In this document: positions 2,364 through 57,199 of the stretch, piece by piece
Numbering within the stretch: position 1 is the first letter of the stretch
Layout: each line of letters opens with the position of its first letter
Virus record (IMG/VR): IMGVR_UViG_3300048999_000173
Span: 19,577-83,576 of that record
Origin: a virus
Strand: one strand, 5' to 3'
DNA: 64,000 nucleotides
The notes under the pieces: model-generated
What the model saw: only the letters and a program-made list of their open reading frames with translations
Told to the model about the DNA's origin: nothing
Database searches by the model: none
Program-made: the position numbers and the translations under genes

Positions 2364-3557
2364 ATGCTCTCCACAGTGCAGAACGCGGTCGAGCAACTGC
2401 CCGTACAGGCATGGGCCGTCCTGCTCGCCACCCTCACCCTCGTCTTCGGCTACCGCATCGCCCGCAAGACGACGCCGAACACCAAAACCGAGCCCGGCCG
2501 GGACAAGATCGAGCGGCGCACCCTCATCGGCTTCACCGGCATGGGCCTCGTCGCCCTCCTCGGCTTCGGCCTCTCCGCCAACACCAGCATCCGCTTCGCC
2601 GAAAAACGCCTCCACATGGAGGCCCCCTGGACCCTCACCATCGGCCTCGCCCTCGAAGGCATCGTCCTCGGACTCACGCTCTACTCCTGGGCCTTCGACG
2701 ACAAGGGCACCGCCCGCGCCGCCTACCTCCTCGTCCTCGCCCAGGCAGTCGGCGCCATCGAAGTCGTCCGCCAGGAACACGAAGACGCCGGCACCGCCCT
2801 CGTCCGCATCGTCGGCCCCGTCATGCTCGCCTACGGCCTCCACAAGCTCCTCGGGCTGGAAGCCAAGCTGGGGAAGCTGAAGATCACATCGGACGGCATG
2901 ATCGCCCGACTGTGGCGGGACCGCCTGAAGCGGCTCGAGAGCAAGCTCGGCATCGGATCCCGCGGCGCCGACGCCGAAGCCATCTCCCGCAGCAACGCCG
3001 CCGACAAGTTCGTCAACCTCAACTCCGTTGGGAAGCCCGCGCTCATGACCGACCGCATGTACCGGCGCGCGCTCGTGAAGGCCGGCCGGGCCGCCCTCCA
3101 CGGCCTCGACGGCTTCGAGCGGCAGATGGCCGAAGCCGTCCTCGTCGACCGGATCGCCTACGAGAAGGGCATGCAGAAGGGCGGTGACCACTTCGAGGTG
3201 GCCCTCATGCGGGGCGTGCGGTCGAACACCGGATCGCTGGAACTGGACGCGTCCTCTCCGGCTGCACTCGGCTTCCTGACCAGCGCGGCTATCGAAGCCG
3301 CACCCGCGAGCCGAGCCGAAGACGCACCCCAGCCGCACGACGACAAGCCGCAGCCGCGTTCGAACCCCGCCGCGACCGAAGCCGAGCGGAAGGCCCGCGC
3401 GTTCCGCGTCTACGCCGACCTTGGACAGCCCTCCCAGCGCGCCTTCATCAAGGTGTGGCGGGAGCGCGGATTCGGCGAGTCCGACCAGACCGTCCGCGAG
3501 CTCTACAACGAGATGCACGAGGCCTTCGAGAACGCCCGCAAGGGAGACACGGCCTGA
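2364..3557 (+). CDS. Polytopic membrane protein, SpdB/DUF2637-like
   Basis: Start ATG 2364 has GGAAGGA 8 bp upstream; the open frame before it is a shadow. The 397-aa product has about five hydrophobic segments in its first 165 residues (16-31, 53-72, 89-109, 117-136, 145-163) and a hydrophilic, Arg/Ala-rich cytoplasmic tail with a helical C-terminus. This topology resembles the membrane spread proteins (SpdB, DUF2637) that accompany TraB-type translocases on Streptomyces plasmids and ICEs; the family link is from memory, not a search. It is translationally coupled to the next gene (ATGA) and opens the block that ends with the FtsK-like protein. Confidence 0.65.
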   Translation: MLSTVQNAVEQLPVQAWAVLLATLTLVFGYRIARKTTPNTKTEPGRDKIERRTLIGFTGMGLVALLGFGLSANTSIRFAEKRLHMEAPWTLTIGLALEGIVLGLTLYSWAFDDKGTARAAYLLVLAQAVGAIEVVRQEHEDAGTALVRIVGPVMLAYGLHKLLGLEAKLGKLKITSDGMIARLWRDRLKRLESKLGIGSRGADAEAISRSNAADKFVNLNSVGKPALMTDRMYRRALVKAGRAALHGLDGFERQMAEAVLVDRIAYEKGMQKGGDHFEVALMRGVRSNTGSLELDASSPAALGFLTSAAIEAAPASRAEDAPQPHDDKPQPRSNPAATEAERKARAFRVYADLGQPSQRAFIKVWRERGFGESDQTVRELYNEMHEAFENARKGDTA

Positions 3558-4069
3558 TGCGCCAGCCGACTACCGAACAGCGTCCGCAGGCCGCCCCCCG
3601 GCCTGCGGTGCCCCTGCACGTTCCCGCACCGCCGCGATCGGCCCCGGCCCCCCTCCCGGTACCGCCCGCCGCACCCGACTGGCCTTCGCGCTGGCACCTT
3701 CTCCTCCCCGCCGGCGTCCGCAACCAGATGGCCGCGCTCGGGCTGTGGCAGAACCCGGTACCCCTGTGCCCCTCCCTGCACCTCGAGCAGACCCTCGCCG
3801 TCCTCGAACGCTACGGCTGGGCCCGCAGCCTCGACTTTTCCCCCACCGGCCGCATGTGCATCCGCGGCTCCCAAACCCTCCTCGAGCGCACCGGGCACGT
3901 CACCCCCGCCGCGCGCGCGAGGGCCGTCGACTTCATGCAGCAAACCCTCCAGGAACACGGCTACCACCAGCCGTTCTTCGCCTGGAACGACCACCAGGAA
4001 CGCACCCTCACCCACGTCCGCAACCTGATCCTCACCTCCGCCCATGCCGCCCGATCCAACGGAGAATGA
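3557..4069 (+). CDS. DUF6197-like protein (170 aa)
   Basis: The ATG overlaps the previous stop. A proline-rich N-terminus (residues 1-45) leads to a globular part with LERYGWARSLDFSPTGRMCI, a pattern I associate with the DUF6197 family, common in actinobacterial phages and mobile elements and of unknown biochemistry. The rest is helical and ends near the GGAG that serves the following gene. There is no membrane segment. It probably works with the membrane proteins around it, but nothing in the sequence defines an activity. Confidence 0.6.
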   Translation: MRQPTTEQRPQAAPRPAVPLHVPAPPRSAPAPLPVPPAAPDWPSRWHLLLPAGVRNQMAALGLWQNPVPLCPSLHLEQTLAVLERYGWARSLDFSPTGRMCIRGSQTLLERTGHVTPAARARAVDFMQQTLQEHGYHQPFFAWNDHQERTLTHVRNLILTSAHAARSNGE

Positions 4070-4071
4070 CC

Positions 4072-4782
4072 ATGAACGAGTACAACGACCCCAACGCCGA
4101 CTTCAACGGCATCATCAACAACGCGTTCACCCCCAACCCGGCCACAAACCCGCAGGTCACACCCGGGCAGACCTACACCAGCCCGGCCGGCTTCTACACC
4201 GACACCCACACCGGCACGCACGGCCCCTACGGCCCGCCGCCCGCCCACCAGGCCCGCCCCGTCAAGACCGGCCTCACCCCCCGCGGGAAGGCCGCCCTCG
4301 CTATCGCCGCGACCATCTGCGCCGGCGGCGGCCTCCTCGGGTGGCAGCACTACGCCGCCGCCCAGGCGGCCAACCAGGTCAAGGCCCAGGAACTGCGGAT
4401 CGAGCAGCAGAAGCTCGCCATCGAGCAGCAGAAAGCCCTCGACAAGGCCACGCAGACCGCGCAGAAGACCCAGAGTGCGGCCGACGCGAACCGGCAGAAG
4501 AAGATCGACGCCTGTGTGCAGGCCAACCGCGGCCTGGTCGGCAAGCAGCTCGGCGCGACCCTCTCCTCCGTCATCCAGGACTGCCAGACCCAGTACCCGG
4601 CCACCGCCGGGACCGGCGACATGCAGGAGGCGGCGACGTCCAGCACCACCGGCGGCAGCGGAAACGCCACCGACATCCTCCTCGTCGGAGGTGCCGCCCT
4701 CGCCCTCGGTGTCGGATTCGCCGTCAGGCGCGCCACCCGCCCCGCACCGGCCCCCGTCTACACCGGATACCCCACCCACTGA
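4072..4782 (+). CDS. Bitopic membrane protein with coiled coil (236 aa)
   Basis: ATG 4072 is chosen because GGAG at 4061-4064 gives it good spacing; ATG 4066, which overlaps the previous stop, is the alternative. The N-terminal 65 residues are Pro/Thr/Gly-rich, followed by a membrane segment (KAALAIAATICAGGGLLGW). Next comes a Gln/Lys/Ala coiled coil and a pair of Cys residues (DACVQ and DCQTQ), which could form a disulfide outside. A second hydrophobic segment near the C-terminus (DILLVGGAALALGVGF) is followed by Arg residues. It looks like a cell-envelope component of the transfer module; no named family recognised. Confidence 0.6.
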   Translation: MNEYNDPNADFNGIINNAFTPNPATNPQVTPGQTYTSPAGFYTDTHTGTHGPYGPPPAHQARPVKTGLTPRGKAALAIAATICAGGGLLGWQHYAAAQAANQVKAQELRIEQQKLAIEQQKALDKATQTAQKTQSAADANRQKKIDACVQANRGLVGKQLGATLSSVIQDCQTQYPATAGTGDMQEAATSSTTGGSGNATDILLVGGAALALGVGFAVRRATRPAPAPVYTGYPTH

Positions 4783-4785
4783 CCT

Positions 4786-4880
4786 ACTTCCCACTCACTT
4801 CCCGGCCAGGAAAACCCCAGCTCACACCCCCACAACCGGCGAAGATCCTGGATCTTCGCCCTGGCCGGGAGGTGGGAAGT
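4786..4880. repeat. Nested inverted repeats in the gap before the large low-complexity gene
   Basis: Three nested pairs share one centre region: ACTTCCCAC (4786-4794) with GTGGGAAGT (4872-4880); TCCCGGCCAGG (4800-4810) with CCTGGCCGGGA (4860-4870); and a near-perfect palindrome GGCGAAGATCC-T-GGATCTTCGCC (4838-4860). The element could fold as a long cruciform or RNA stem. Within a transfer-like operon it could be a terminator, an operator or a cis-acting transfer locus. Confidence 0.7.
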
Positions 4881-4913
4881 AAACGACCTTCACCCACGGG
4901 AGGAACCCGACTC

Positions 4914-7079
4914 ATGGCGAGCGACACCGCCCCCGCCGCACCCGGCCCGGACGCCCCCGACATGCCCGCCCACGCCCCCCACCCGGCGACCGGAGCACCG
5001 GACGCCCCGACCCGCGGAGGCCTGGGCTGGCTCGCATCCGCCCTCCAGCCCGTCGACCCCGCCCGCCCCACCTTCGACCTCACCCCCACCCTGGGCGACA
5101 CCACCGCCGACCTGAACGGCATCGACCTCACCGCCCTCACCGGCGGGCCCGGCGGCGGCCCGTCCAGCGCCGCCTACCACGACGGCACCACCCCCCCCAC
5201 CGACACCACCGGCACGAACAGCGCCGGCGGCCAGGAGAAGAGCATCGTCCGCGCCTGGCTCCTCGCCGGCGCCGAACGCTGGCGCAAGGGCGCCGACGCC
5301 CGCAACAAGGCGTTGGACATCCAAAAGGCCAAGGCCACCGCCCTGCAGGTCAAGGAGTCCCGCACCGTCAACCGCTCCGAGAAGATCGTCGGAGGGGGAA
5401 CCAGCTCCGCCACCAGCGGCAAGACCGACGCCGGGAAGTCGAACACCAGCAAGACCAGCAACTCCGGCCCGGGCGGGGCGAAGAACGGCTCCGCCGGCGG
5501 TAAGAGCACAGGGTCCGGCGCTGGCTCGGGGGCCGGTGGCCGCGGTGGAGGATCCGGCACCGGACGAGGAAACGGGGCGGGTACGGGCGGCGGCCGCGGC
5601 GGCACCAGGGGCAGCGACGCCGGCACCAGCAAGGACCCGAAGACCAATCACGCCAAGGGCGCCGACCACACCAAGTCCCCCAGCCCCTCCAACAGCGGCG
5701 GGAAGCCCGGCAAGGACGGCCCGTCCGGCAGCCACGGCTCCTCCGGGAAGCTCGGCAAGGACACCGCCTCCCACAACGGCAGCGGGAAGAGCCCCAAGCA
5801 GCAGACCACCAGCACCTGCGGCGACGCGTCCGGCATCAGCATGACCAAGGACAAGAAGCCCAAGGCGCCCAAGGACACCAGCGGCGACACCACGGCGGCC
5901 GCCCCGAAGACGCCCAAGCCGTCACCCACGAAGAACCCGCCCCAACCGGGAAGCGGCACGCCGGGCCCCAAGGGCGGCCCGGGCGCGGGCGGGGGAGCGG
6001 GCGGCACCACTACACCCGGCGCGGGGACCGGCAAGCCCGTCGACATGAAGAAGAACCCCGACCTCAAGGGCGGCGACAAGACCAAGCCCAGCACCGACAC
6101 CACCGGCCGCACCGACCTCACGAAGAAGCCCAAGACCGACCCCAAGATGCCGAGGGCCGGCGAGCAGCAGACCACCGGGCCGACCGTCCGCACCCAGGCC
6201 ACCCGCGAAGCCGGATACCGCGACGGCACCCGCCTCGGCACCGCCGTCGCCCACGCCGGCGCCTACAAGGACGGGGTCAAGGACGGCTACCGCGACACCT
6301 CCGAGGCTGCCGCCCGCGAGAAGGACCGCCTCGACAAGGCCCACCAGAAGCACAAGCCGGGCGCCGCACCGCAGCCCGCCCCGGCACCCATACCGCCCAA
6401 GCCGACCGTTCCGCCGAAGCCCACCACACCACCCCCCACCCCCACAGCCACCCCCCGCCCGGGCCCCGCAGCAGCGCCCAAGCCGACCAAGCCCACCACC
6501 GTCCCCGACCCGCGTACCGCCCTGATGAAGCCCAAACCCAAGCCGAAGCCTGACCCCAAGGAGGCACCCGTGGCCGCCCCCAGCAGCGCCGACTACCACC
6601 CCCCGCAGCGACCAGCCGACACCCCGATCGGCGTCTCCCGCGTGGGCCAGACCCACGTCGTCCTGGACAGCGGACAGGTCATCTCCCGCGGCGAAGTCCG
6701 CAACCTCAAGGACTACGAACGGCGCTTGGACGAGAAGACCATCGCGATGCACAAACTCGCCGACCTGGCCAAAGCCCTCCAGGCGCACGCCCAGGACCAG
6801 AACAAGGAAGTCACCACCCTCCTCGAGCAGGCCCGCACCAAGTCCGTCGGCGCCACCCTCATCGGAAACCTGACCAGGCTCCAGGAACGCACGGCCCTCC
6901 AAGCCCACCAGGCAACCGAACTCCTCAAGCGGGCCGTTCGGGCAGCCGAGTCCACCACCGTCCTGCTCGCCAACGTGACCACCCGCTACGGCGGCATCTA
7001 CAAGGCCGTCTGCGACTCCCCACTCGAGATCCCCGGCGAACTCGACTTCTACGACGACAGGACGGCCACCAGTGTCTGA
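4914..7079 (+). CDS. Large low-complexity protein of the transfer-like module (721 aa)
   Basis: ATG 4914 is preceded by GGGAGGA. Residues 1-100 are Ala/Pro/Thr-rich and 100-165 form a helical segment (SIVRAWLLAGAERWRKGAD). Residues about 165-430 are Gly, Ser, Lys, Pro and Thr linker. Around residue 434 is a regular G-x3-G pattern (AGYRDGTRLGTAVAHAG), then a Pro/Lys linker. The last 160 residues are a predicted coiled helical domain (KLADLAKALQAHAQDQNKEV). Long flexible linkers joining helical ends suggest a scaffold or tether bridging envelope proteins and DNA. It overlaps the next gene by 8 bp. No family is assigned; it could be a phage structural protein, but its neighbours argue for transfer. 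Confidence 0.6.
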   Translation: MASDTAPAAPGPDAPDMPAHAPHPATGAPDAPTRGGLGWLASALQPVDPARPTFDLTPTLGDTTADLNGIDLTALTGGPGGGPSSAAYHDGTTPPTDTTGTNSAGGQEKSIVRAWLLAGAERWRKGADARNKALDIQKAKATALQVKESRTVNRSEKIVGGGTSSATSGKTDAGKSNTSKTSNSGPGGAKNGSAGGKSTGSGAGSGAGGRGGGSGTGRGNGAGTGGGRGGTRGSDAGTSKDPKTNHAKGADHTKSPSPSNSGGKPGKDGPSGSHGSSGKLGKDTASHNGSGKSPKQQTTSTCGDASGISMTKDKKPKAPKDTSGDTTAAAPKTPKPSPTKNPPQPGSGTPGPKGGPGAGGGAGGTTTPGAGTGKPVDMKKNPDLKGGDKTKPSTDTTGRTDLTKKPKTDPKMPRAGEQQTTGPTVRTQATREAGYRDGTRLGTAVAHAGAYKDGVKDGYRDTSEAAAREKDRLDKAHQKHKPGAAPQPAPAPIPPKPTVPPKPTTPPPTPTATPRPGPAAAPKPTKPTTVPDPRTALMKPKPKPKPDPKEAPVAAPSSADYHPPQRPADTPIGVSRVGQTHVVLDSGQVISRGEVRNLKDYERRLDEKTIAMHKLADLAKALQAHAQDQNKEVTTLLEQARTKSVGATLIGNLTRLQERTALQAHQATELLKRAVRAAESTTVLLANVTTRYGGIYKAVCDSPLEIPGELDFYDDRTATSV

Positions 7080-7504: not shown

Positions 7505-9832
7505 ATGACCACGGCCACCACCACCCAGCACCGGCCCGGCACCGAGCGCGCCATCGCCGCCGTCACCGCCGCCGCCCCCGTGGCCGTCGGCATCCTCACC
7601 CCCTTCCTGGACGGCGACGCCACCACCGTCCTCGCAGGCACCTACGTTGCAGCCAGCGCCCTCACCATCAGCAACGCCATGAACTTGATCCCAGCCGACC
7701 TCGCCGAACAACTCCCCGCCTCCGACGTCCTGAAGGCACACAAGGCCACCCTGTTCGGATCCACCCTCACCACCGGCCTCGCCCTCGCCATGGGCTCCTT
7801 CGCAGGCGGGCCCGGCGCCGACGCGCTGATGCTCGGCTGGCTCCACACAGCCTCCAACCCGATCCCCGGGATCGTCTCCCTCGGCTGGTGGGCCGCCACC
7901 CTCCTCGTCCCCTACAAACTGCGCCGCATCCTCTGGCCCACCCGCGCCCGCAAGACCGCCCAGCCCGCCCGCCCGCAGCGTCCGGCCCAGCACCCGGCCA
8001 TGCCCGCCCTTCCCCCCGACGTCCACGACATCCTCGCCAAGTGGGGCCAGCACATCTCCCCGGACACCGGCACCCACAAGGGACAAGTCCTCCACGTCAC
8101 CCACTTCGTCCCCGGCCGGTACTGGAAGGGAACCATCACCGCCACCACCCCCGGCGCCCCCGTCACCGTCACCCCCGAAACCGTCTCCGGCGTCTACCGC
8201 AAGCCCGCCGAATGGATCCACATCAACACCGGTGCACACGCAGGGGAACGCCACATCACCGTCAACCTGACCGCCCCACCGGAACTCGACACCAGCACTC
8301 TCCAAGGCGCCTGGCGCAAGTGGGCCGCCCGCTCCGGCGGCATCATGGCCGACACCCACCTCGAGAACGTGCAGGACGACCCCAACACCGGCGGCCAAGT
8401 CGCCGTCGTCGTCGCCGGAGAGAACCTCGACAAGCTGCCAGTCCCCGACCGGGCCTCCCTCGCCGGAGCCCTCCGCACCAAGCCTCTCCTCATCTCCTAC
8501 GAGCTGCGCCAGGACCCCCGCCAGGCCGTCATCCGCAAGATGGACCGCAACCCCCTCCAAGACGGCGCCGAATTCCCCGGCCTCCACGTCCTCAAGCCCA
8601 ACGCCAACGGCTACATCCAGATCGGCCCCGGCATCAGCGGCTTCCCCGCCCGCATCCAACTCCACGACCCGAAACTGGGCGGCCAGCACGTCATCGTCGC
8701 CGGCGTCACCGGATCCGGGAAAGGCGGAACCCTCCAACTCATCGCCCTCGCCCACCACACCAGCGGATCAGCGATCATCTACGCCGACCCCAAGGGCTCC
8801 AGCAACCCCGCCATCACCAAGATGGCCGCCTACTCCGGCCTCGGCGAAGACGCCGCAATGGGCGCCCTCCGCATCTGGTACCACGGCCTGATGCGCCGCA
8901 TCGAAGCGTCAGCGCGCGCGGAGATGAAGAACTTCAAGCCCGCCAAGGACCGCCCCTGGGCCCCCCTCATCTTCGACGAGGCCAGCACCTTGCTGACCTC
9001 CGCCACCTACAAGAAGGAAGCCGTCCACATCATCAAGGACGGAGCAAAAAAGGGCCGCTCCCTCGGCATGCCGATCGTCCTCGCCAACCAGATCCTCCAA
9101 CTGGCTGAACTGGGCGGCGAATCAGCCATCCGCGACAACATGTTCTACGGCGGCTCCCTCATCCTCCTGCGCTCCGACAGCTCCCAGAAGCACCTCGTCG
9201 ACCTCCCCGACACGTTCGCCGGCTGCAACCCCGCCGACATCCCCCCCGCCTGGGCCGAAGACCGCGCCCTCGTCTTCGACCCCAACACCCCCCAGAACGA
9301 CCCCATCCGCACCTTCGGCCTCAACTTCTGCGCAGCCCCCGGCGCGCACGCCGAAATGTCCCGCACCTGGATCCTCGAGGACGCCACCCCCTACATCGAA
9401 CAGGACAACGTCGGCATCCCTCACGACTGGCCCTTCTGGGAAGACCGCCACGAACTCGCCCAGATCTCCGTCCTCCCCGACGGCGAAGGCAACGAGGACG
9501 ACGACTACGAAGGCGGATCAGCCGGCACCTTCCTCACCGGACTCGACATCGGCCCGAAGAAGCCCGCCAGCGCCGACGACAAGATCCTCACCGCGCTCAA
9601 GGACGTCGCCGACCCCATGGGCCTCGAGTCCATCTACCTCGACAAGCCCACCATCACGCGGATCACCAGCGTCGAAGGCTCCACCCTCGACAACGCCCTC
9701 TCCCGCCTCGCCACCAACGGCAAAATCCACCGCCAGATCAAGGACGGCAAGGAGATCCGCGGCATGTACGCCCACGGCCCCCGCCCCATCACCCCCACCG
9801 ACGAGACCGACAACGGAGACGCGACAACCTGA
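7505..9832 (+). CDS. FtsK/SpoIIIE-type DNA translocase, TraB-like (775 aa)
   Basis: Three or four hydrophobic segments in residues 13-138 anchor the protein in the membrane. A linker domain precedes the ATPase core, with Walker A GVTGSGKGG (residues 400-408) and Walker B LIFDEAS (about 488-494). Downstream is a typical FtsK-family segment (MPIVLANQILQLAELGG). The C-terminal region after about residue 690 resembles a small winged helix (ITRITSVEGSTLDNALSRL), possibly the DNA-recognition module. In Streptomyces such single proteins move double-stranded plasmid DNA between hyphae as TraB hexamers. A chromosomal FtsK role is unlikely, given the neighbours and divergent N-terminus. RBS AGGAGA lies upstream. 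Confidence 0.85.
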   Translation: MTTATTTQHRPGTERAIAAVTAAAPVAVGILTPFLDGDATTVLAGTYVAASALTISNAMNLIPADLAEQLPASDVLKAHKATLFGSTLTTGLALAMGSFAGGPGADALMLGWLHTASNPIPGIVSLGWWAATLLVPYKLRRILWPTRARKTAQPARPQRPAQHPAMPALPPDVHDILAKWGQHISPDTGTHKGQVLHVTHFVPGRYWKGTITATTPGAPVTVTPETVSGVYRKPAEWIHINTGAHAGERHITVNLTAPPELDTSTLQGAWRKWAARSGGIMADTHLENVQDDPNTGGQVAVVVAGENLDKLPVPDRASLAGALRTKPLLISYELRQDPRQAVIRKMDRNPLQDGAEFPGLHVLKPNANGYIQIGPGISGFPARIQLHDPKLGGQHVIVAGVTGSGKGGTLQLIALAHHTSGSAIIYADPKGSSNPAITKMAAYSGLGEDAAMGALRIWYHGLMRRIEASARAEMKNFKPAKDRPWAPLIFDEASTLLTSATYKKEAVHIIKDGAKKGRSLGMPIVLANQILQLAELGGESAIRDNMFYGGSLILLRSDSSQKHLVDLPDTFAGCNPADIPPAWAEDRALVFDPNTPQNDPIRTFGLNFCAAPGAHAEMSRTWILEDATPYIEQDNVGIPHDWPFWEDRHELAQISVLPDGEGNEDDDYEGGSAGTFLTGLDIGPKKPASADDKILTALKDVADPMGLESIYLDKPTITRITSVEGSTLDNALSRLATNGKIHRQIKDGKEIRGMYAHGPRPITPTDETDNGDATT

Positions 9833-10714: not shown

Positions 10715-11272
10715 ATGGCCTGGTCGAAATACAAGCTGGACGAAGTCATCGTCCGCCGCACCAAACTCCTCGAGCTGCGCCGCCAAGGCGTCCGATACGA
10801 CGACGAGCGCATCGAGAAGCTCGGCTACAGCAGCCCCGGCGCCGCCCGCAAAGACCTCGCACGCGCCCTCGAAGCCCACCGCGACGAGGAAGCCGCCGAG
10901 GTCGGCATCTACCGGCAGCAGGAGAACGAACGCCTCGACGCCCTTCTCGAGGCCGTATGGTCGCGCGCCACCACCCTCTCACCCGTCCTCGATAAGGAAG
11001 GCGAGGTCATAGACCACGTCCTGGACGTGAAGGCCGTCGACACCGTGCTGCGCCTCATGGACCGCCGCGCCAAACTCAACGGCCTTGACATGCCCGTCAA
11101 GGCGGAACTGTCCGGGCCCAACGGAGGCGCCCTGAGGATCGGGCCGGCCGGAATCGATGAACTGAACAAGCTGATCAACATGGCTGGCGACCCCGACGCC
11201 GAAGACGACGCCCCGGTCGAAGACGAAGAACTGGAAGACGGCGACGTGGATGACGACGGCGACCACACCTGA
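10715..11272 (+). CDS. terS: Terminase small subunit-like protein (185 aa)
   Basis: The product starts MAWSKYKLDEVIVRRTKLLELR and reads as an N-terminal helix-turn-helix DNA-binding domain, a central helical oligomerisation part and an acidic tail (DDAPVEDEELEDGDVDDDGD). This is the usual order in small terminases, which bind the packaging site and load the large subunit. It lies directly before, and overlaps by 23 bp, a clear large terminase gene. The late-region repeat sits upstream. The call rests on position and architecture; sequence divergence of TerS prevents a firmer one. Confidence 0.7.
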   Translation: MAWSKYKLDEVIVRRTKLLELRRQGVRYDDERIEKLGYSSPGAARKDLARALEAHRDEEAAEVGIYRQQENERLDALLEAVWSRATTLSPVLDKEGEVIDHVLDVKAVDTVLRLMDRRAKLNGLDMPVKAELSGPNGGALRIGPAGIDELNKLINMAGDPDAEDDAPVEDEELEDGDVDDDGDHT

Positions 11273-12866
11273 CCAGTGGGACGGCCTCGAAGAACACGAA
11301 GTCGTCCAAGAGGCCGAAGCCCTCCTCCAACTCGTCGCCCGCTACCGGCGCCTCAACCGCGCCCAACGCCGCCGCATCGCCTTCCAGGCCAGCCCCGAAG
11401 TCCGCAGCGTCCTGGCCCAGGTCGAGTGCGACATGGCGCTCGAGCGATCCCCCGGCTCGATGGCCGCAGTCCTCACCGACGGACGCGAAAAGCAGGCCCG
11501 CCACCTCGACCTGATCGACCGAGTGTTCCGCGACATCGCCCGCGGCCACTCCCGCAAGGTCCTCATCACCATGCCCCCACGGCACGGCAAGTCCCGCCGC
11601 GCCGCCCGCTGGGCCCCCCTGTGGTTCCTGTCCCGGCACCCCGACCGCCGCGTAATGATCGCCTCCTACAGTGCCGACCTCGCCGACGACCACGGCCGGT
11701 GGATCCGCGACGCGATCGTCTCCTACGGCCCCCAACTCGGCCTCGCCCTCCACGCCGGATCCAAGGCCGCCAACCGCTTCGACCTCGCCGACCCCGAGAC
11801 CGGAGAACGCCTCGAAGGCGGCCTCGTCACCGCAGGCGTCGGCGGAGGCCTCACCGGCAAGGGCGCCCACCTCGCGATCGTCGACGACCCCATCAAGGAC
11901 GCCGCAGACGCCGAATCACCCACCATGCGCAAACGGCTGTGGGAGTGGTGGACATCCGTCCTCAACACCCGCGTCGAACCCGGCGGATCCATCATCGTCA
12001 TCCAGACCAGATGGCACGAAAAGGACCTCGCCGGCCGCATCCTCGAAGGCGAAGACGCCTCCGACTGGACCGTCATCGACCTGCCCGCGATCTGCGACAG
12101 CGAAGACGACCCCCTGGGCCGGGAGATCGGACAGCCGCTGTGGCCCATCCGATACGGCCTCAAAGCCCTCGAGAAGATCCGGCGCGCGGTCGGGGAACGC
12201 GTCTGGTGGTCCCTCTTCCAGCAGAAGCCACGCCCCCTCGAAGGCGGCGTGTGGAAGTGGCCATGGATCACCGACAACCGGATCAGTGCCGAGCGCTACC
12301 GGGCTGTCGACCTTTCGCGCACCGTCGTCGCCGTCGACCAGGCCGGAGGCGAGGGCGACACCCACGACGAGACCGGCATCATCGGCGCCGGCCGGACCAC
12401 CGACGGCAACATGTACGTCCTCGCCGACCGGTCGGCGAACATGGGCGCGGACACGTGGGGGCACGTAGCGTGCCGCCTGGCCATCGAGCTGAAGGCCGAC
12501 GCGTTCGTCGTCGAAGACAACTTCGGCGGCGACCAGTCCTCCCAGATCATCCGTCAGGCTTGGCGTGACCTGCAACGATCCGGGGAGACGGAGGGCCTCA
12601 TCATGCCCCTGATCATCCCCGTGCACGCCAAGCAGGGTAAGAAGCTTCGCGCCGAACCCATCGGCCAACTCGCTGCGCAGGCCCTCATCCACCACGTCGG
12701 CGAGTTCCCCCGCCTCGAAGGCCAGTTGGTCACCTGGATACCCGGCATGGATTCCCCGGACCGTATGGACGCCTACGTTCACGCCCTCACCGAACTTGCC
12801 GACCCTGCGCAAGAGGGCATCGGCGCTCAGCAGTATTCCGACCAGCGCCTCCGAGGCCGCCGCTGA
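11250..12866 (+). CDS. terL: Terminase large subunit (538 aa)
   Basis: An ATPase-nuclease motor that packages DNA into the prohead. The N-terminal half has the Walker A variant MPPRHGKS (residues 108-115) and a Walker B LAIVDDP, with the coupling motif QTRWHEKDL. The C-terminal RNase H-like nuclease has acidic clusters VVAVDQAGG, VVEDNFGGD and MDAYVHALTELAD. Length is typical. The ATG at 11250 lies inside the terS end, so the two genes overlap and are probably coupled. It is followed by a 10-bp inverted repeat and the portal gene. Confidence 0.92.
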   Translation: MTTATTPDQWDGLEEHEVVQEAEALLQLVARYRRLNRAQRRRIAFQASPEVRSVLAQVECDMALERSPGSMAAVLTDGREKQARHLDLIDRVFRDIARGHSRKVLITMPPRHGKSRRAARWAPLWFLSRHPDRRVMIASYSADLADDHGRWIRDAIVSYGPQLGLALHAGSKAANRFDLADPETGERLEGGLVTAGVGGGLTGKGAHLAIVDDPIKDAADAESPTMRKRLWEWWTSVLNTRVEPGGSIIVIQTRWHEKDLAGRILEGEDASDWTVIDLPAICDSEDDPLGREIGQPLWPIRYGLKALEKIRRAVGERVWWSLFQQKPRPLEGGVWKWPWITDNRISAERYRAVDLSRTVVAVDQAGGEGDTHDETGIIGAGRTTDGNMYVLADRSANMGADTWGHVACRLAIELKADAFVVEDNFGGDQSSQIIRQAWRDLQRSGETEGLIMPLIIPVHAKQGKKLRAEPIGQLAAQALIHHVGEFPRLEGQLVTWIPGMDSPDRMDAYVHALTELADPAQEGIGAQQYSDQRLRGRR

Positions 12867-14929: not shown

Positions 14930-15721
14930 ATGCGTCGCCCCGCGCAGCACCACCTCGGCCCCATCGCTCGCACCTGGGCCCACCCCTACCACGGGGTGGC
15001 AGGCCTCGCCGTGTTCTACAACGACGGCGGCCAGAACCCGGCGGTGCCCCCGGTGGTACCCCCGGCTACTGACCCGGCCGCCGGAGACCCCCCCAAGCCG
15101 GGACCGCCCGCCGCCCGCACCTTCACCCAGGCCGAAGTCGAAGCACTCGCCGCCCGGGAGAAGGCTCAGGGCAAGCGGTCGGCCGCCAAGGAGTTCGCCG
15201 AGAAGCACGGCTTCAGCACCATCGAGGACGCTGAGGCGTTCATCGCCACCGCCCGCAAGGCGCAAGAGGACGCCCTGTCTGAGCAGGAGCGCGCCCAGAA
15301 GCAGCTCGAGGACGACCGTGCCCGCGTGGAGTCCGAACGGACCACGCTGGCCGCTGAACGCCGCACCCTGCGACGTGAGCAGGCCCTTGCCCGCCTTGGG
15401 GCCGTCGACATCACCGACGAGCAGGGGCAGGTCGTCCCCAACCTGGCGGACGCGCTCGCCATGCTGGACCGGGACCTCAGCGCAACCCCCGACGCCGACG
15501 AACAGACGGTCACAGAAGCCGCCACCAGGCTGAAAGCCCGCCGCCCCGAACTCTTCGGCGCACCTGCCACCGTTCCGGCCGCCGGGCAGATGCCGCCCGC
15601 GCCGGGCGGGGCCCCAGCCGGCGGCCCGCCCCCGCGGCAGACGCCCGCAGGGAAGCCCGGAGACCGCGGACGGGAGATGGCACGCCTGCGCGGCCACGTC
15701 CGCGACAGCAAAGCCGCATAG
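14930..15721 (+). CDS. Capsid scaffolding protein (263 aa)
   Basis: ATG 14930 has GGGAGGA upstream; a GTG at 14864 overlapping the portal stop is the alternative and would add 22 residues. The product has a Pro-rich N-terminus, a long charged coiled coil (AEVEALAAREKAQGKR to RTLRREQALARLG, residues about 65-165) and a Gly/Pro-rich stretch before a basic C-terminus (GREMARLRGHVRDSKAA). This is the usual composition of internal scaffolds that guide procapsid assembly. It sits between portal and capsid genes. Confidence 0.75.
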   Translation: MRRPAQHHLGPIARTWAHPYHGVAGLAVFYNDGGQNPAVPPVVPPATDPAAGDPPKPGPPAARTFTQAEVEALAAREKAQGKRSAAKEFAEKHGFSTIEDAEAFIATARKAQEDALSEQERAQKQLEDDRARVESERTTLAAERRTLRREQALARLGAVDITDEQGQVVPNLADALAMLDRDLSATPDADEQTVTEAATRLKARRPELFGAPATVPAAGQMPPAPGGAPAGGPPPRQTPAGKPGDRGREMARLRGHVRDSKAA

Positions 15722-15833: not shown

Positions 15834-16583
15834 GTGAACGACTTCCAGCCCTACTCCTACACGGACAGCGTCACCGCCGACCGGCCGTGGCTCGCGTCCC
15901 TGGTAGGAGTCCAGGACACCAACAGCATCACCCTCGACCTGACCAAGTTCACGCAGGGCACCCACTACGTGACCTCCGCGAACCCGGCCCTGCAGGGCCG
16001 CAACGTCATGAAGTCCGGCATCCCGCTGGGCAAACTCAACTCCTCCGGCCTCTACGCCCCGTACTCGGGGCCCCGGTCCGAGGTCCAGACCGTCACCATC
16101 ACCGGCGGCCCCACCGGCGGGACCTACACCCTGACCTTCTCGGGTCAGACCACCGCCGCGATCCCGTACAACGCGACCGCCGCCCAGGTGAAGACCGCGC
16201 TGGAGGCCCTGTCCAACGTGGCGGTCGGGGAGGTCGCCGTTTCCGGTGGCCCGCACCCCGGCACGGCGATCGTCGTCACGTTCGGCGGCCAGTACATGGG
16301 CGACGACGTTCCCCAGATGACCGCCACCAGTTCCCTCACCGGCGGCACCAGCCCGGCCGTCGCCGTGGCCACCACCACCGCGGGCGGCGGCGCCTCTGCG
16401 TCCGACGGCAGCGAGGTCCTCGCCGGATTCCTCGTCTCGGAGATCAGCTTCAACCCGACCTCCGTCAAGGCGGCCGGCGCACTGCTGTGGCGCGGCGAGG
16501 TCTTCGCCGACCAGTGCCCCATCCCGTTCGACCCCACCGACGTCGCGTCCACCGCGCCCGGCGTCAACATCCACTACCGGTAA
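15834..16583 (+). CDS. Head decoration protein with an Ig-like insert (249 aa)
   Basis: GTG 15834 follows AGGAGAAG. Residues 1-80 and 186-249 resemble phage head-stabilisation proteins that precede the major capsid gene (TADRPWLASLVGVQD at the start; LLWRGEVFADQCP near the end). Between them lies a 100-residue beta-sandwich-like domain (84-185, TVTITGGPTGGTYTLTFSG to TGGTSPAVAVATT). The major tail protein carries the same domain at its C-terminus. It is expected on the outside of the capsid, where such domains often bind cell surfaces. The position right before the capsid gene supports the call. Confidence 0.75.
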   Translation: MNDFQPYSYTDSVTADRPWLASLVGVQDTNSITLDLTKFTQGTHYVTSANPALQGRNVMKSGIPLGKLNSSGLYAPYSGPRSEVQTVTITGGPTGGTYTLTFSGQTTAAIPYNATAAQVKTALEALSNVAVGEVAVSGGPHPGTAIVVTFGGQYMGDDVPQMTATSSLTGGTSPAVAVATTTAGGGASASDGSEVLAGFLVSEISFNPTSVKAAGALLWRGEVFADQCPIPFDPTDVASTAPGVNIHYR

Positions 16584-16602: not shown

Positions 16603-17649
16603 ATGGAAGCTCTCGAGCTCCTCCTGCGGGACACCAACGACACCGACCTGACGGTGTTCGCCCGGGCCATGTACACCCCGGCGAACTACCGCCTCACCCG
16701 GGAGATCCTTCCGGAGTTCCCCATCCAGGGCGTCAAGTTCCGCACCACGTCCGCGAAGCGGCGCGTCAACGCGGCCAAGTTCCGCGCCTACGACGCACCG
16801 ACCGCGCTCGCCAAGCGCCAGGCGGAACGAGTCGTCAACGAGGGCATGCTGCCCGCCCTCGGCCAGACCCTCCCCATCACCGAGATGGACCAGATCCTGC
16901 TGGACGTCGGCCGCGGGGCCGACACCCAGCAGTACATCGACCTGCTCTACTCGGACGTCGAACGGCACGTCGAGTCCATCAAGACCGCGCAGGAGATCGC
17001 TGCCGGCCAGCTCCTGGCCACCGGCAGGGTCGACCTGCCCGGCATCGGCCTGGACGTCAACTGGAACGTCCCCTCGGCGAACATGCCCACCGCCGGAGTG
17101 CTTTGGGACCAGCCGACCGCCACCCCGCTGTCTGACGAGCGCGCGTGGATCGACTACCTCGTCGACTCCGGCGCCCCCGCGCCGAAGGAGGTCCTCACCT
17201 CCCGGCGCGCCCGCTCCATGCTGGCCTCCAACGCTGAGTATCAGATGGCCTTCTACGGGCAGAACTCCGCCAACAACCCGGGCACCACGCTGTCGCCGCT
17301 CGAGGTCGACGCCGTGCGCGCCCGCTTCGGCCTCCCGCCGATCGTCATCTACGACGTCCAGGTGTGGAACGACGACGTCTACCAGCGGGTCATCCCGGAC
17401 AACAAGTGGATCCTCATCCCCGACGTCCCGGCGTCGGAGTGGGCGCAGACGCAGTACGGCGTCACCCGCGAGGCCGCGAAGTTCACCTCCGGCACCAACC
17501 CGGCCCTCACCCGCGAAGAGGCCCCCGGCATCGTCGTCGTCACCAAGGTCGAGGACGACCCGGTGCAGATCTACACCCGAGGCGCCGCGATCGGCATGCC
17601 GGTCCTCTACGTCCCGGACATTCACATCTCCGCCACCGTCCTGGGGTGA
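16603..17649 (+). CDS. Major capsid protein, lambda gpE-like (348 aa)
   Basis: Main shell protein with HK97 fold. The product starts MEALELLLRDTNDTDLTVFAR and contains segments of the Phage_cap_E type (MLPALGQTLPITEMDQILLD; GIGLDVNWNVPSANMPTAGV; IVIYDVQVWNDDVYQRVIPD). Length is normal for this family. An RBS AAGGAG lies at 16588-16593, 19 bp after the decoration gene. The gene order terL-portal-scaffold-decoration-capsid is canonical. Confidence 0.88.
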   Translation: MEALELLLRDTNDTDLTVFARAMYTPANYRLTREILPEFPIQGVKFRTTSAKRRVNAAKFRAYDAPTALAKRQAERVVNEGMLPALGQTLPITEMDQILLDVGRGADTQQYIDLLYSDVERHVESIKTAQEIAAGQLLATGRVDLPGIGLDVNWNVPSANMPTAGVLWDQPTATPLSDERAWIDYLVDSGAPAPKEVLTSRRARSMLASNAEYQMAFYGQNSANNPGTTLSPLEVDAVRARFGLPPIVIYDVQVWNDDVYQRVIPDNKWILIPDVPASEWAQTQYGVTREAAKFTSGTNPALTREEAPGIVVVTKVEDDPVQIYTRGAAIGMPVLYVPDIHISATVLG

Positions 17650-19862: not shown

Positions 19863-20311
19863 TGCCGGGCCTGGACCGCGCTCTCGCCAGCGTCACCAAG
19901 TGGATCGGCACCAACCTCCTCGTCGACACCGTGCGCGTCGAACTCCCCGCCGTCGGCAAGCCCGTCCTCAACGAGCAGACCGGTGTCCTCGAGCGCCCGC
20001 AGCGTGAGGTGCTCTATGAAGGCCCGGGCGCCGTCCAGGGCGGCACCGCGCAGTCGGAGATCTCCGCCACCCCGGGCGCGCTGCAGCCGTGGACGCAGGA
20101 GACAAAGTCCCGCTACCGCCTGTTCACCCCCCTCACCGCCCCTGTGTCGCCGAAGGACGCCATCGTCACCGTGGTCCAAGTCCACGACCCGGCTAACACC
20201 GCTCTCATCGGCCGCTCCTGGACGTGCCAAGATCCCGGCCGCGCGGCCACAGTGGAAGTCGTCCGCATCACCCCACTTGACCAGGACCAGGACCAGGGGG
20301 TGACGGGGTGA
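19862..20311 (+). CDS. DUF6093-like head-tail adaptor (149 aa)
   Basis: ATG 19862 overlaps the previous stop. Segments DTVRVELPAVGKPVLNEQTG and REVLYEGPGAVQGG match my memory of the DUF6093 family, found between capsid and tail genes of Streptomyces phages and probably a head-closure protein. The C-terminal part is strand-rich (AIVTVVQVHDP). Its stop overlaps the following GTG. Confidence 0.65.
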   Translation: MPGLDRALASVTKWIGTNLLVDTVRVELPAVGKPVLNEQTGVLERPQREVLYEGPGAVQGGTAQSEISATPGALQPWTQETKSRYRLFTPLTAPVSPKDAIVTVVQVHDPANTALIGRSWTCQDPGRAATVEVVRITPLDQDQDQGVTG

Positions 20312-40589: not shown

Positions 40590-40997
40590 ATGACTCAGAC
40601 CGCCGACGACCTGGTGCAGTTTCTGCATGTCCGACTCGAAGAAGAAGAGCAACTCGCGCAGGCGGCAACGCCGGGCCCGTGGAAGCAGAACGGCATCGGC
40701 GAATACGGATGGACGGTCAGCTTCAGTCGACCGGGCTCCGGGGTAGAGACCGAGGACAGCGGCCAGGGGCGCGCCGACGCCGACTACATCGCCGCGCACG
40801 CCCCCGAGCGCGCCCTGCGGGAGATCGCCTTCAAGATGAGCCTCCTGACCGAGTACACCAAGGAGGAGTGGGTGATGAAGCAGGGGCACCGCAGCGGATG
40901 GACTGAGGGCGGCCAGTCCGTACGCGACCTCCTCATCAAGGAGTGGGCCTCCGCCTACGACGCCCACCCCGAGTACCGCCAGGAGTGGCGGCCGTGA
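40590..40997 (+). CDS. DUF6221-like protein (135 aa)
   Basis: ATG 40590 preferred over TTG 40584. The pattern ADDLVQFLHVRLEEEEQLAQ, then IAAHAPERALREIAFKMSLL, and a C-terminal YDAHPEYRQEWRP, recalls the DUF6221 family of actinobacterial proteins with unknown function. A second member of this type is at 50715. The stop overlaps the integrase start (GTGA), so the two are coupled. Confidence 0.6.
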   Translation: MTQTADDLVQFLHVRLEEEEQLAQAATPGPWKQNGIGEYGWTVSFSRPGSGVETEDSGQGRADADYIAAHAPERALREIAFKMSLLTEYTKEEWVMKQGHRSGWTEGGQSVRDLLIKEWASAYDAHPEYRQEWRP

Positions 40998-54917: not shown

Positions 54918-55075
54918 CGACCACAACGCCGTCGGCCCGCCCGCGCACCCAGACCCCCGCGCTGCCGGTCCGGCCCCGGCCACTGTGGGAGCGAGACCGG
55001 CTGTTCCTGGAGCCCGACTTGCCCGAGAGGCTGGACGTCACGGAGGACGAAGAGGATGCCGAGGACGGGTGGTGA
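54914..55075 (+). CDS. Small Pro/Arg-rich protein ending at the parS-like site (53 aa)
   Basis: ATG 54914 overlaps the previous stop (ATGA). The product is Pro/Arg-rich at first and acidic at the end (VTEDEEDAEDGW). Its stop codon lies inside the first 23-bp palindrome, which ties the gene physically to the partition site. Function unknown. Confidence 0.5.
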   Translation: MTTTTPSARPRTQTPALPVRPRPLWERDRLFLEPDLPERLDVTEDEEDAEDGW

Positions 55076-55090
55076 CCAATGGTCACCACC
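55068..55090. promoter_or_regulatory. parS: parS-like palindrome 1
   Basis: GGTGGTGACC-AAT-GGTCACCACC, 10-bp perfect arms around three bases. A second copy is 44 bp away and the parB/parA genes start downstream on the other strand, the normal setting for a centromere. Confidence 0.65.
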
Positions 55091-55111
55091 TTCGGGTCAG
55101 ATAGACGACAA

Positions 55112-55134
55112 GGTGGTGACCATTGGTCACCACC
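55112..55134. promoter_or_regulatory. parS: parS-like palindrome 2
   Basis: GGTGGTGACC-ATT-GGTCACCACC, identical arms to copy 1 with an inverted centre; two further base pairs (AA/TT) extend it to 12-bp arms at 55110-55136. It lies 32 bp beyond the end of parB. Confidence 0.65.
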
Positions 55135-55166
55135 TTGAGGCATCGGGCCGCGAGGGCAGGTGGGAG

Positions 55167-56045
55167 TTACCCCAGGCCGCCTGCCAGCTCCTCGATCAGC
55201 TCACGCACAGCGCTCTCCAGCTGCTCAGCCTCCCGTCGCGCCCGGGCTGGATCCCGCTCCGCCAGCTCACGGATCCGCGCGACCGCCCGCAGTGACTCAC
55301 TGACCGACACTGCCGTCTTTCGTGTCGGCTTTGCCTCGGACGGCCCGGACACCTCCTTTGGAGGGGCGTAACCGAGGAAGTTCGCCGCCTGCATCAGCGC
55401 CGTGTCCGTGACGTTGCCGTGCCGGGCCGCTTCCAGCCACGTCTCACGGACCGGGTCCACGCCGTGGGTGTCGAGTATCGGGACCAGGACCCGCAGGGGA
55501 CGTTCCTTCAGCTCCTGGGTGGTGATGTCCTCGAGGACCTGAGCGACCGGAGTCACCCGGATGATGTTGTTCGCCTGGTGCTTTTTGATGCCGAACCGGG
55601 CTTCGGCGAGATCCCCGAACGTGTCGTGCCCTGCGACCTTGTGGAGTTCCTCTTCCTTCATCGCCCGCAGCCGCAGACCCAGGCCGATCAGCCTCTGCTG
55701 GTCGGCACGTTCGTGGTTGGCGCGGGCCGCGTACTGAACGGCGAGAATGCCGCGGGAGTAGAACTCCAGCCGCTCGGACGGATCTGCACTGTCCGGCTCG
55801 GTGAATTCCGGCATCGGCAGGTAGCCGGCCGCCGCGCGCGCAGGCGCCACGGGCGCATCGTCGGCCGCCCGTTCAGCCTGCACCGGGAGCGGCGCTGCCA
55901 CCGGCTGAACGGGGGGTGCCGATGCAGCGGCCTGCTGCTCTCGCCGGGCGCGCTCCGCCTCTTCCCACTTCCGCAGTTCGTCCTCGCGGGATGTGTCCCC
56001 GCCCTGGCCGACCACCGGGATGACGGGTGGTTCCTTCCTGCTCAC
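55167..56045 (-). CDS. parB: ParB-like partition (centromere-binding) protein (292 aa)
   Basis: Its ATG (56045) overlaps the ParA stop, the standard parAB coupling. A flexible N-terminus (1-75) leads to a helical region with an HTH-like part (FGDLAEARFGIKKHQANNII) and a coiled C-terminus (ESLRAVARIRELAERDPARA). The CTPase (ParB/Srx) motif GERR is not visible, so this is not a canonical chromosomal ParB but a plasmid-type adaptor. Two palindromes lie just past its end. The role is inferred mostly from context. Confidence 0.7.
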   Translation of the reverse strand: MSRKEPPVIPVVGQGGDTSREDELRKWEEAERARREQQAAASAPPVQPVAAPLPVQAERAADDAPVAPARAAAGYLPMPEFTEPDSADPSERLEFYSRGILAVQYAARANHERADQQRLIGLGLRLRAMKEEELHKVAGHDTFGDLAEARFGIKKHQANNIIRVTPVAQVLEDITTQELKERPLRVLVPILDTHGVDPVRETWLEAARHGNVTDTALMQAANFLGYAPPKEVSGPSEAKPTRKTAVSVSESLRAVARIRELAERDPARARREAEQLESAVRELIEELAGGLG

Positions 56046-57199
56046 GCCGCCAGCTCCTTCGCCAGGGACCGCATCACCTGCGCCTGACCAGAGTCAGGAG
56101 CGTGCTCAAGGAGAGGGATCTGGTAGTCGGACGACTCCCGCCCCTCCACCGCGTCCTTCAGCGTGGCCAGCACGCCCGGAGTAGTGAGACCGTTCCAGCC
56201 GTCGTAGAAGCTGCGGGTACCGACACCCTTGCGCGCGTCGTAGGCGTTGACGACGAACCCGAGCTGGTCGACCACCGCTCCGGTCAGCCGGGAGTGCGTA
56301 CCGATCTGCTCGTTCAGCATCTCGTACGCGTCGAACGAGGACCGGTCGGACCAGACAGGGATGAGGATCCCGGAGTGGTCGATCAGCTCGCCGGGACGGC
56401 GCTGCACGTAGTTGATGGCGAGGTCTATGGCCAGACCCAGGTTCGGCGGCCCGTCCAGGACGATGACGTCGTAGCCCTCCTCGAGCGGGGCGATCGCACG
56501 CGCCAGGCAGGTGTCCCGGCCGACCTGGAGCAGGGCAAGCTTGGCGTCCATGAGGAAGGCGTCCTTGGACGCGGGCAGGATGTGCAGGCGGCCCCCGAAC
56601 CGTTCCTGGGGGAGCGCAACCAGGGAGCGGGCCAGGTGCTTGTCCGCCTCACCCAGCATGTGCTCGAGGAGACTGTTGGCGCCCTTGGGCAGGCCTGGGA
56701 TCTGGAGGCGGCTGGTGAGGTGGCCCTGCGGGTCGTAGTCGACGAGGAGGACACGCTGGCCGGCTTCCGCCATCGCCTGGGCGAGCCCGGCCGCGACGAA
56801 CGTCTTGCCGACGCCGCCCTTCTGATTGCCCACCAGGATCCGCTTCACCGGCTGCGACACCAGCCGCTGGGAGGGCGAGGGGTGCAACTGCAGCCAGTGG
56901 ACGATGGCCTGCGCCATGCCCTGCACCTTGGTGATCCCGCGGAGTTCGCAGTCCTGCGTGAACCGTCCGGGCAGCCCGGGGGCGAGGAACACCCCCCACG
57001 ACTTCGAACCCCTGGTGTCGATTGCCTCGAAGACCGTGTCGCCGGTGTCGGTCTCGAGCCACAGGGCAACTGCGTTGGATGCGGCGTCCTGCATGTTCAG
57101 TCCGTGCTCGGCAGCCCGGATGCGGAGGTCTCTGCGTAGCTCCGGGGTCAGATTGACGAGCAGTTTTTCGCGCGCATCGTCGGCGCTCGGGTTGGTCAT
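56042..57199 (-). CDS. parA: ParA ATPase with N-terminal ribbon-helix-helix-like domain (385 aa)
   Basis: ATG 57199 is preferred over the upstream frame start. Residues 10-50 (LLVNLTPELRRDLRIRAAE, LNMQDAASNAVALWLE) read as a ribbon-helix-helix DNA-binding domain. The ATPase has the deviant Walker A KGGVGKT (127-133), A' DYDPQGHL (154-161) and Walker B VIVLDGPP. ParA moves plasmid copies apart using DNA-bound ATP dimers. The RHH part could let the protein autoregulate its operon. No good SD is visible, and a TAATTT lies 9-14 bp upstream, hinting at a leaderless mRNA. Confidence 0.85.
   Translation of the reverse strand: MTNPSADDAREKLLVNLTPELRRDLRIRAAEHGLNMQDAASNAVALWLETDTGDTVFEAIDTRGSKSWGVFLAPGLPGRFTQDCELRGITKVQGMAQAIVHWLQLHPSPSQRLVSQPVKRILVGNQKGGVGKTFVAAGLAQAMAEAGQRVLLVDYDPQGHLTSRLQIPGLPKGANSLLEHMLGEADKHLARSLVALPQERFGGRLHILPASKDAFLMDAKLALLQVGRDTCLARAIAPLEEGYDVIVLDGPPNLGLAIDLAINYVQRRPGELIDHSGILIPVWSDRSSFDAYEMLNEQIGTHSRLTGAVVDQLGFVVNAYDARKGVGTRSFYDGWNGLTTPGVLATLKDAVEGRESSDYQIPLLEHAPDSGQAQVMRSLAKELAA

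What the first reader, a model, noticed from the sequence alone, without database searches (positions are those of the whole stretch)
2364..57199. One element carries a complete siphovirus, a TraB-like transfer module and plasmid partition genes
The window holds terminase to lysis genes in canonical order, a membrane-anchored FtsK/SpoIIIE translocase with membrane partners, and a ParA/ParB/parS-like locus with a DciA-like protein. Phage-plasmids are known in Streptomyces (pZL12), but a unit with packaging motor, inter-mycelial DNA translocase and partition system together could move both as a virion and by conjugation.
Basis: partly seen in the sequence, partly recalled or inferred. Interest (0 to 1): 0.8.

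Follow-up and report, generated by a model that had tools for sequence, protein, structure and literature searches.

The report
Streptomyces phage-plasmid with DNA-transfer module
This is a nearly complete virus of soil bacteria that also lives as a plasmid and carries a DNA pump probably used for direct cell-to-cell transfer; such double-mode elements are already known in Streptomyces, but the pump here is a different, swappable kind shared with ordinary plasmids.

Summary
Confirmed; largely a known kind. The window is 64 kb of an 83.6-kb virus record, collinear with phage-plasmid pZL12 and 34 related plasmids (33 are 85-94 kb). Both contig ends are family genes, so no chromosomal prophage. 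The virion block is complete. ParA and a ParB-like gene lie on the minus strand, beside two 17-bp palindromes. New here: (1) the motor is not TraB by sequence, though AlphaFold gives an FtsK/TcpA motor and a C-terminal winged helix. (2) In 33 of 34 family plasmids an FtsK/HerA motor was found upstream of the terminase, in six strongly diverged classes, one true TraB. (3) This class's cassette also sits on five linear plasmids without recognised phage genes; their motors branch in three places among phage-plasmid motors. All five have a MOBF relaxase match (one a fragment); none of 14 phage-plasmids does. (4) The cassette holds a diverged palindrome whose arms covary: candidate transfer origin or regulatory hairpin. 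Transfer by this motor is inferred, not shown.

The parts
2364..3557 (+). 397-aa protein, first gene of the transfer region; membrane protein by its hydrophobic N-terminal part (seen in the translation, no predictor run)
   Evidence: 71% identical to pZL12.73c, noted there as similar to membrane protein SCO6921; 12 plasmid records match, 9 of them over at least 80% of its length
3557..4069 (+). 170-aa DUF6197 protein of the cassette
   Evidence: PF19698 7e-16; found in four of the five non-phage type-A plasmids at 51-55%
4072..4782 (+). 236-aa protein with two hydrophobic stretches (seen in the translation)
   Evidence: translation and homologues
4785..4881 (.). long imperfect inverted repeat: arms 4785-4810 and 4860-4881, inner hairpin 4840-4858; candidate cis-acting transfer site or regulatory hairpin
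   Evidence: stem score 43.0 against at most 34.3 in 40 shuffles; counterparts in the same gap of other type-A cassettes
4914..7079 (+). 721-aa low-complexity protein with a conserved C-terminal part of about 160 aa
   Evidence: 32-55% identical over the matched part in most type-A cassettes, including all five non-phage ones
7072..7452 (+). 126-aa protein directly upstream of the motor
   Evidence: 29-49% identical in most type-A cassettes; in L030 only by position
7505..9832 (+). type-A DNA translocase (775 aa): predicted N-terminal helices, FtsK/TcpA motor with P-loop GVTGSGKGGT, C-terminal winged helix
10715..11272 (+). small terminase-like protein
   Evidence: 67% identical to pZL12.68c over 135 aa, phrog_645 (labelled RNase E there); role by position
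11250..12866 (+). terminase large subunit
   Evidence: phrog_38 7e-97, PF03237
12957..14867 (+). portal protein
   Evidence: phrog_64 4e-17; pZL12.66c 67%
14930..15721 (+). head scaffolding protein
   Evidence: phrog_2303 5e-17
15834..16583 (+). head decoration protein
   Evidence: phrog_3583 4e-24
16603..17649 (+). major capsid protein
   Evidence: PF03864 4e-27
20308..20697 (+). neck or tail completion protein
   Evidence: phrog_5 1.6e-7
21287..22093 (+). major tail protein
   Evidence: phrog_2491 4e-33
23162..28405 (+). tape measure protein, 1747 aa
   Evidence: phrog_10780 5e-113
28392..33444 (+). distal tail, two minor tail proteins, tail fibre-like protein
34763..36434 (+). CHAP endolysin (34763-36022) and holin (36063-36434)
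40994..42025 (+). tyrosine recombinase
   Evidence: 84% identical to pZL12.36c; PF00589
51283..54066 (+). helix-turn-helix protein (51283-52815, weakly like pZL12.20c) and DciA-like protein (53038-54066); probable replication region (inference)
55071..55131 (.). two 17-bp palindromes GGTGACCAWTGGTCACC, parS-like
   Evidence: in none of the 125 loci held then
55167..56045 (-). ParB-like protein, by position only
   Evidence: no family hit
56042..57199 (-). ParA partition ATPase
   Evidence: AAA_31 1.8e-24; NF041546 below its cut-off

Best explanation
The element is a pZL12-type siphovirus phage-plasmid of Streptomyces. As a lysogen it would be a circular low-copy plasmid held by a ParA/ParB-like/palindrome locus (shown as genes; behaviour inferred). 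Lytically it would package and lyse with its own terminase-to-holin block (genes shown). A third block at 2364-9832, just upstream of the terminase, is a transfer cassette: membrane proteins, a low-complexity protein, a 126-aa protein, and an FtsK-type translocase with a C-terminal winged helix (fold predicted; hexamer inferred). Most likely the winged helix picks a site on the element's own DNA and the motor pumps double-stranded DNA to a neighbouring hypha, as TraB does, without a relaxase (inferred). The palindrome inside the cassette is the leading candidate for that site, at about 0.3.
For: Identity: pZL12 and 36 plasmids match the packaging block; protein-level collinearity with pZL12; single permuted replicon. 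Transfer: (a) of 34 plasmid records with TerL at least 57% identical, 33 have an FtsK/HerA motor: 19 type A, 3 B (pZL12's), 6 C, 2 D, 2 TraB (pCQ4 scored 847.7 bits, cut-off 800; pCQ3 is 94% identical to it), 1 other; 32 lie within about 5 kb upstream of TerL, CP054917's about 12 kb. (b) The cassette recurs in the same gene order on five linear plasmids without recognised phage genes. (c) Their motors sit in three places among phage-plasmid motors; one clade rejected, p-AU 5e-11. (d) Predicted fold: FtsK Z 24.6 (331 aligned, rmsd 4.1), TcpA Z 23.4 (327, rmsd 8.0), TrwB Z 14.0 (222, rmsd 4.2); winged helix Z 9.4. (e) Plasmid-phages, pZL12 named, are reported to conjugate.
Against: No hit of the window motor to the TraB model NF041214 at E up to 0.01 and none of pZL12.71c to the window, so pZL12's transfer data do not carry over by homology. 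The five non-phage type-A plasmids all match the MOBF domain PF08751 (in L029 only a 65-position fragment) and the 14 phage-plasmid records do not, so the motor may work with a relaxase elsewhere. The P-loop has G where Ser/Thr is usual (13 of 13 type-A motors). A hydropathy scan finds only one membrane segment in the window motor. One family plasmid, CP108485, shows no motor by three searches. Motor and TerL identities are uncorrelated (rho 0.001, 30 loci), but portal and TerL nearly so too (0.085, 26 loci), so mosaicism is genome-wide. No TRS-like 8-bp repeat array was seen. The pZL12 and pFP4 papers themselves were not read. [quoted passage not shown]
Confidence: 0.72

Rival explanations
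1. The translocase serves segregation or intramycelial spreading (Spd-like) of the plasmid form inside one mycelium, not entry into a new recipient.
For: FtsK fold; membrane partners; Spd proteins of Streptomyces plasmids act in intramycelial transfer (PMC12857230 passage).
Against: True TraB fills the same slot in pCQ4; pZL12 transfer needs its major tra gene; a separate ParA locus is present for segregation.
Confidence: 0.14
2. Type A is a TcpA/VirD4-like coupling protein that needs a relaxase; the phage-plasmids lack one and are only mobilised with help in trans.
For: PF08751 (MOBF) matches in 5 of 5 non-phage type-A plasmids, one a fragment, and in 0 of 14 phage-plasmid records; TcpA Z 23.4; NCBI names several relatives 'type IV secretory system conjugative DNA transfer family protein'; GKG in the P-loop (VirD4/TraG-like, recalled).
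Against: Besides the window's, 12 phage-plasmid records have a motor but neither relaxase family searched; TraB replaces it in pCQ3/pCQ4; FtsK is as close as TcpA and well ahead of TrwB.
Confidence: 0.12
3. The translocase is a phage gene for virion assembly, packaging or ejection.
For: It lies directly upstream of the terminase genes on the same strand.
Against: The same cassette occurs on linear plasmids without recognised phage genes; no match in 50,697 phage records; six classes, about 30% identical or less where they align at all, fill the slot beside a conserved packaging block; a complete terminase is present.
Confidence: 0.05
4. Two unrelated integrated elements, a prophage and a plasmid, happen to lie side by side.
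For: The record is a contig without end repeats, so circularity is not shown directly.
Against: Collinearity with circular plasmids, the contig ends falling close together in two relatives.
Confidence: 0.02

Closest known systems
Plasmid-phage pZL12 (GQ919031, 90,435 bp)
   Same: Collinear virion block (TerL 61%, portal 67%, Dit 75%), 73c-like membrane protein 71%, integrase 84%, DciA-like protein, FtsK motor in the same slot
   Different: Motor of another class with no tblastn hit; ParA match only 27% with E 3e-4; no hit of its type III PKS or SSB in the held sequence
pSLE1 (S. leeuwenhoekii, LN831788) and pSAM1 (S. ambofaciens, CP012383)
   Same: Circular phage-plasmid-type plasmids with the same type-A cassette upstream of TerL (motor 47% and 52%)
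   Different: [quoted passage not shown] the first gene of the region does not match
pCQ3 and pCQ4
   Same: Related TerL (62-64%) and a transfer motor in the same slot
   Different: Motor is a true TraB (NF041214, 847.7 bits for pCQ4)
pSCL2 of S. clavuligerus and four other linear plasmids
   Same: Same cassette order and similar gene sizes, motor 42-49% identical
   Different: Linear, no phage genes annotated in the 14-18 kb read, MOBF relaxase match
TraB of Streptomyces plasmids
   Same: Predicted N-terminal helices, FtsK motor, C-terminal winged helix
   Different: No match to the TraB model; no 8-bp TRS array found

Membership tests
pZL12-type phage-plasmids | Collinear terminase-to-lysis block related to pZL12 | tested here: met
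pZL12-type phage-plasmids | FtsK-type transfer motor upstream of the terminase | tested here: met
   Met by position (33 of 34 family plasmids have a motor); not by homology to pZL12.71c
pZL12-type phage-plasmids | Partition genes | tested here: met
   ParA by Pfam; ParB-like by position only
pZL12-type phage-plasmids | Circular plasmid state of about 85-94 kb | tested here: inconclusive
   83.6-kb contig, no end repeats; ends fall close together in two relatives
pZL12-type phage-plasmids | Infective virions and conjugal transfer | not testable with these tools
   experiments needed
TraB (NF041214) | Score over the curated sequence model | tested here: not met
   No hit at E up to 0.01; pCQ4 is the positive control, 847.7 bits
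TraB (NF041214) | N-terminal membrane segment | tested here: inconclusive
   Four predicted helices, but only one passes the hydropathy cut
TraB (NF041214) | FtsK motor fold and C-terminal winged helix | tested here: met
   Predicted models, pLDDT 77.6 and 88.3
TraB (NF041214) | Binds 8-bp repeats (clt/TRS) | not testable with these tools
   No such array seen; candidate palindrome instead
VirD4/TcpA coupling proteins of T4SS | Relaxase on the element | tested here: inconclusive
   PF08751 and PF03432 not found in G000; other relaxase families not searched, and an estimated 2-4 kb of the element is missing
VirD4/TcpA coupling proteins of T4SS | VirB4 and mating-pair genes | not tested
   no search made

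The most novel reading that the evidence does not exclude
Streptomyces phage-plasmids keep a transfer-engine slot that is nearly always filled and freely refilled from conjugative plasmids, so virion spread and mycelial conjugation are both maintained by selection in intact phages. The type-A cassette carries its own palindromic, fast-evolving transfer origin, matched to the motor's winged helix, which can send double-stranded DNA without the relaxase that its plasmid relatives carry.
Probability: 0.3. Interest if true: 0.75.

Novelty: new variant of a known kind. Interest (0 to 1): 0.48.

Why it matters
[quoted passage not shown] The main texts of the three such papers I searched contain no 'Streptomyces'. 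Here more than thirty elements with a related packaging block carry a conjugation-type motor that relaxase-based typing misses: all 36 plasmids matching the block at DNA level are typed 'non-mobilizable'. If the motors work and the phages are intact (checked here only for the window), dual transmission is the rule in this family, and motor swapping gives a natural experiment on what a dsDNA conjugation engine must recognise.

Tried and rejected
Clt as tandem 8-bp repeats: a tandem-repeat scan of the window and a direct-repeat scan of 1-12 kb showed no array of that kind.

ParA/ParB on the plus strand: I first took two plus-strand ORFs (55419-56087, 56027-57139); they have no family hits. The minus-strand reading is right.

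The palindrome as a general feature of the slot: the gaps of pZL12, three type C, one type D and both TraB cassettes show no such pyrimidine-armed repeat by eye or fold; the pZL12 gap used may include mis-annotated coding sequence.

Motor recognition of the palindrome: gap identity tracks the motor's winged helix (rho 0.35) better than its RecA part (0.16) or TerL (-0.05), but tracks the N-terminal part still better (0.42), so inconclusive. Five of 29 gaps do not beat all 40 shuffles (L025, L031, L063, L069, L076), and only 17 of 29 exceed the 95th percentile of random pieces. A first pass on longer 320-base segments was noisy: many did not beat their 12 shuffles. The 29 are the distinct gaps of 33 loci with both flanking genes detected; L083 was dropped for lack of a start codon. 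L022 (pSCL2), L023, L028, L029 and L030 fell outside because one flanking gene is too diverged; scored only, all five beat their 12 shuffles.

FtsK's own gamma domain was not among the listed matches of the winged helix, which excludes nothing. Absence of phrog_38 from the five linear plasmids is weak evidence alone, since CP107843, which has an annotated PBSX-type terminase, lacks it too; 'no recognised phage genes' rests on annotation of 14-18 kb of each. TerL rows H188 and H191 (29-32% covered) were left out of the 34; 70 of the 130 records matched were not listed. Family plasmids with another terminase (such as CP109578, CP108705) are not among the 34.
Full report
What it is. The window is bases 19,577-83,576 of an 83,576-base virus record. 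Its packaging block matches phage ZL12/pZL12 and 36 of 72,556 plasmid records, all Streptomyces. Tblastn of 77 of the 112 pZL12 proteins shows the virion block collinear: TerL 61%, portal 67%, capsid 63%, Dit 75%; integrase 84%. I fetched the remaining 19.6 kb. Translated comparison shows the record circularly permuted relative to CP107756 and CP109494, its two ends landing close together in both; by spacing I estimate 2-4 kb missing. No chromosomal flank was seen. Terminase, portal, scaffold, decoration, capsid, connector, major tail, tape measure, Dit, fibre, endolysin and holin are all recognised.

Corrections to the observation. ParA (56042-57199) and its partner (55167-56045) are on the minus strand; the partner has no family hit and is called ParB-like by position. 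Two exact 17-bp palindromes lie just beyond it. pZL12's ParA is only weakly related (27%, 3e-4).

The transfer cassette. 2364-9832 holds six genes. The last, a 775-aa motor, has no hit to the TraB model and is not hit by pZL12.71c. AlphaFold with 39 sequences (pLDDT 77.6, pTM 0.53) gives four N-terminal helices (only one passes a hydropathy scan), an FtsK-like motor (best chain Z 24.6, 331 aligned, rmsd 4.1; TcpA 23.4, rmsd 8.0; TrwB 14.0) and a C-terminal winged helix, confirmed on its own (pLDDT 88.3; Z 9.4). All 13 type-A motors have P-loop G[VT]TGSGKGG, with glycine where serine or threonine is usual.

One slot, many motors. Of 34 plasmid records whose TerL is at least 57% identical over 86% or more of the query, 19 have the window's motor class, 3 pZL12's, 6 a third class (one, CP054917, 47% identical to the rest and about 12 kb from TerL), 2 a fourth, 2 TraB (pCQ4 847.7 bits against a cut-off of 800; pCQ3 94% identical) and 1 a sixth; in CP108485 none was found. 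Where classes align at all they are about 30% identical or less. For 13 of the 19 type-A records and the 3 type-B ones the class rests on the tblastn hit and its distance to TerL, not on a fetched region; in CP075614 the match is in five pieces and in CP058980 in three, so those motors may be broken.

Same cassette on plasmids without recognised phage genes. The window's motor finds 163 plasmid records, 58 over at least 80% of its length, and none of 50,697 phage records. Five fetched linear plasmids (62-323 kb) have the low-complexity, 126-aa and motor genes in the same order (in L030 the 126-aa gene by position only). S. europaeiscabiei CP107843 has the cassette beside a PBSX-type terminase. 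In a quick tree of 51 motors the five sit in three places among phage-plasmid motors; one clade is rejected (p-AU 5e-11); ten rows were of unknown kind. PF08751 (TrwC/MOBF) matches in 5 of 5 of these plasmids (in L029 a 65-position fragment, 30.4 bits) and 0 of 14 phage-plasmid records, that is the window's, pZL12 and 12 others, 8 of the 14 with type A; PF03432 is in 0 of 19. In IMG/VR 70 loci were confirmed, 52 at 41% identity or more; 37 of the 52 hold a TerL of this family within the fetched flank; some are short contigs and some repeat one another.

A cis element. Between the 236-aa and 721-aa genes lies a gap of about 130 bp that is kept in type-A cassettes. In 24 of 29 distinct gaps its best stem beats all 40 dinucleotide shuffles (mean score 48.6 against 24.9). 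Pairing the outer left arm of one locus with the right arm of another drops the score from 37.1 to 19.9, so the arms change together. The left arms show a 4-bp period (0.48 against 0.32). Against random 128-nt pieces the medians are 50.0 and 29.6. This is either a transfer site or an RNA hairpin ahead of the motor genes; nothing here separates the two.

What is already known. [quoted passage not shown] PMC4170104 (passages) says that plasmid-phages conjugate and also make infective particles, citing Chen 2012 on pFP4 (not read). PMC4487206 (passages) calls pSLE1 homologous and syntenic to pZL12. So the kind of element and its double mode are known; the motor class, the slot comparison, the sharing with MOBF plasmids and the palindrome I did not see described in the listings and passages from seven literature searches, which is a limited look.

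Verdict. A real member of a remarkable known group, with a transfer engine of a class that I did not find described. Transfer by this motor is an inference from position, fold, replacement by true TraB and sharing with plasmids.

Noticed in passing
window 7505-9832 and alignment A1: All 13 type-A motors carry GKG instead of GK[ST] in the P-loop, a form I recall from VirD4/TraG coupling proteins, although the fold is closer to FtsK and TcpA.
   Followed up: partly
L016, L032, L021: Odd family members: a 152-kb linear plasmid with TerL, a cytochrome P450 and an FtsK motor (CP054917); a type-A cassette next to a PBSX-type terminase (CP107843); and a sixth motor with P-loop GTTRSGKGVG (CP042280).
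   Followed up: partly
L002 29644-30987 (pZL12.100), L008 22492-23532, L020 4384-5433: Several phage-plasmids of this family carry a type III polyketide synthase gene (annotated PKS or PhlD); a homologue 95% identical to pCQ3's makes an alpha-pyrone in S. somaliensis (PMC4924298 passages). No hit to pZL12.100 in the window or in the first 19.6 kb.
   Followed up: partly
L012 12297-12743, L022 12245-12742, L126 5380-5850: Genes annotated 'Pycsar system effector family protein' or DUF5706 sit downstream of the motor in both phage-plasmids and pSCL2.
   Followed up: no
L013, L017, L018, L028 terminase region: The terminase match is in two pieces or overlaps annotated HNH or LAGLIDADG endonuclease genes in several relatives; the window's is one open frame.
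   Followed up: no
window 62942-63766: DUF5131 protein (PF07505 2e-83); several related plasmids have a 'phage Gp37/Gp68 family protein' under the matching stretch.
   Followed up: no
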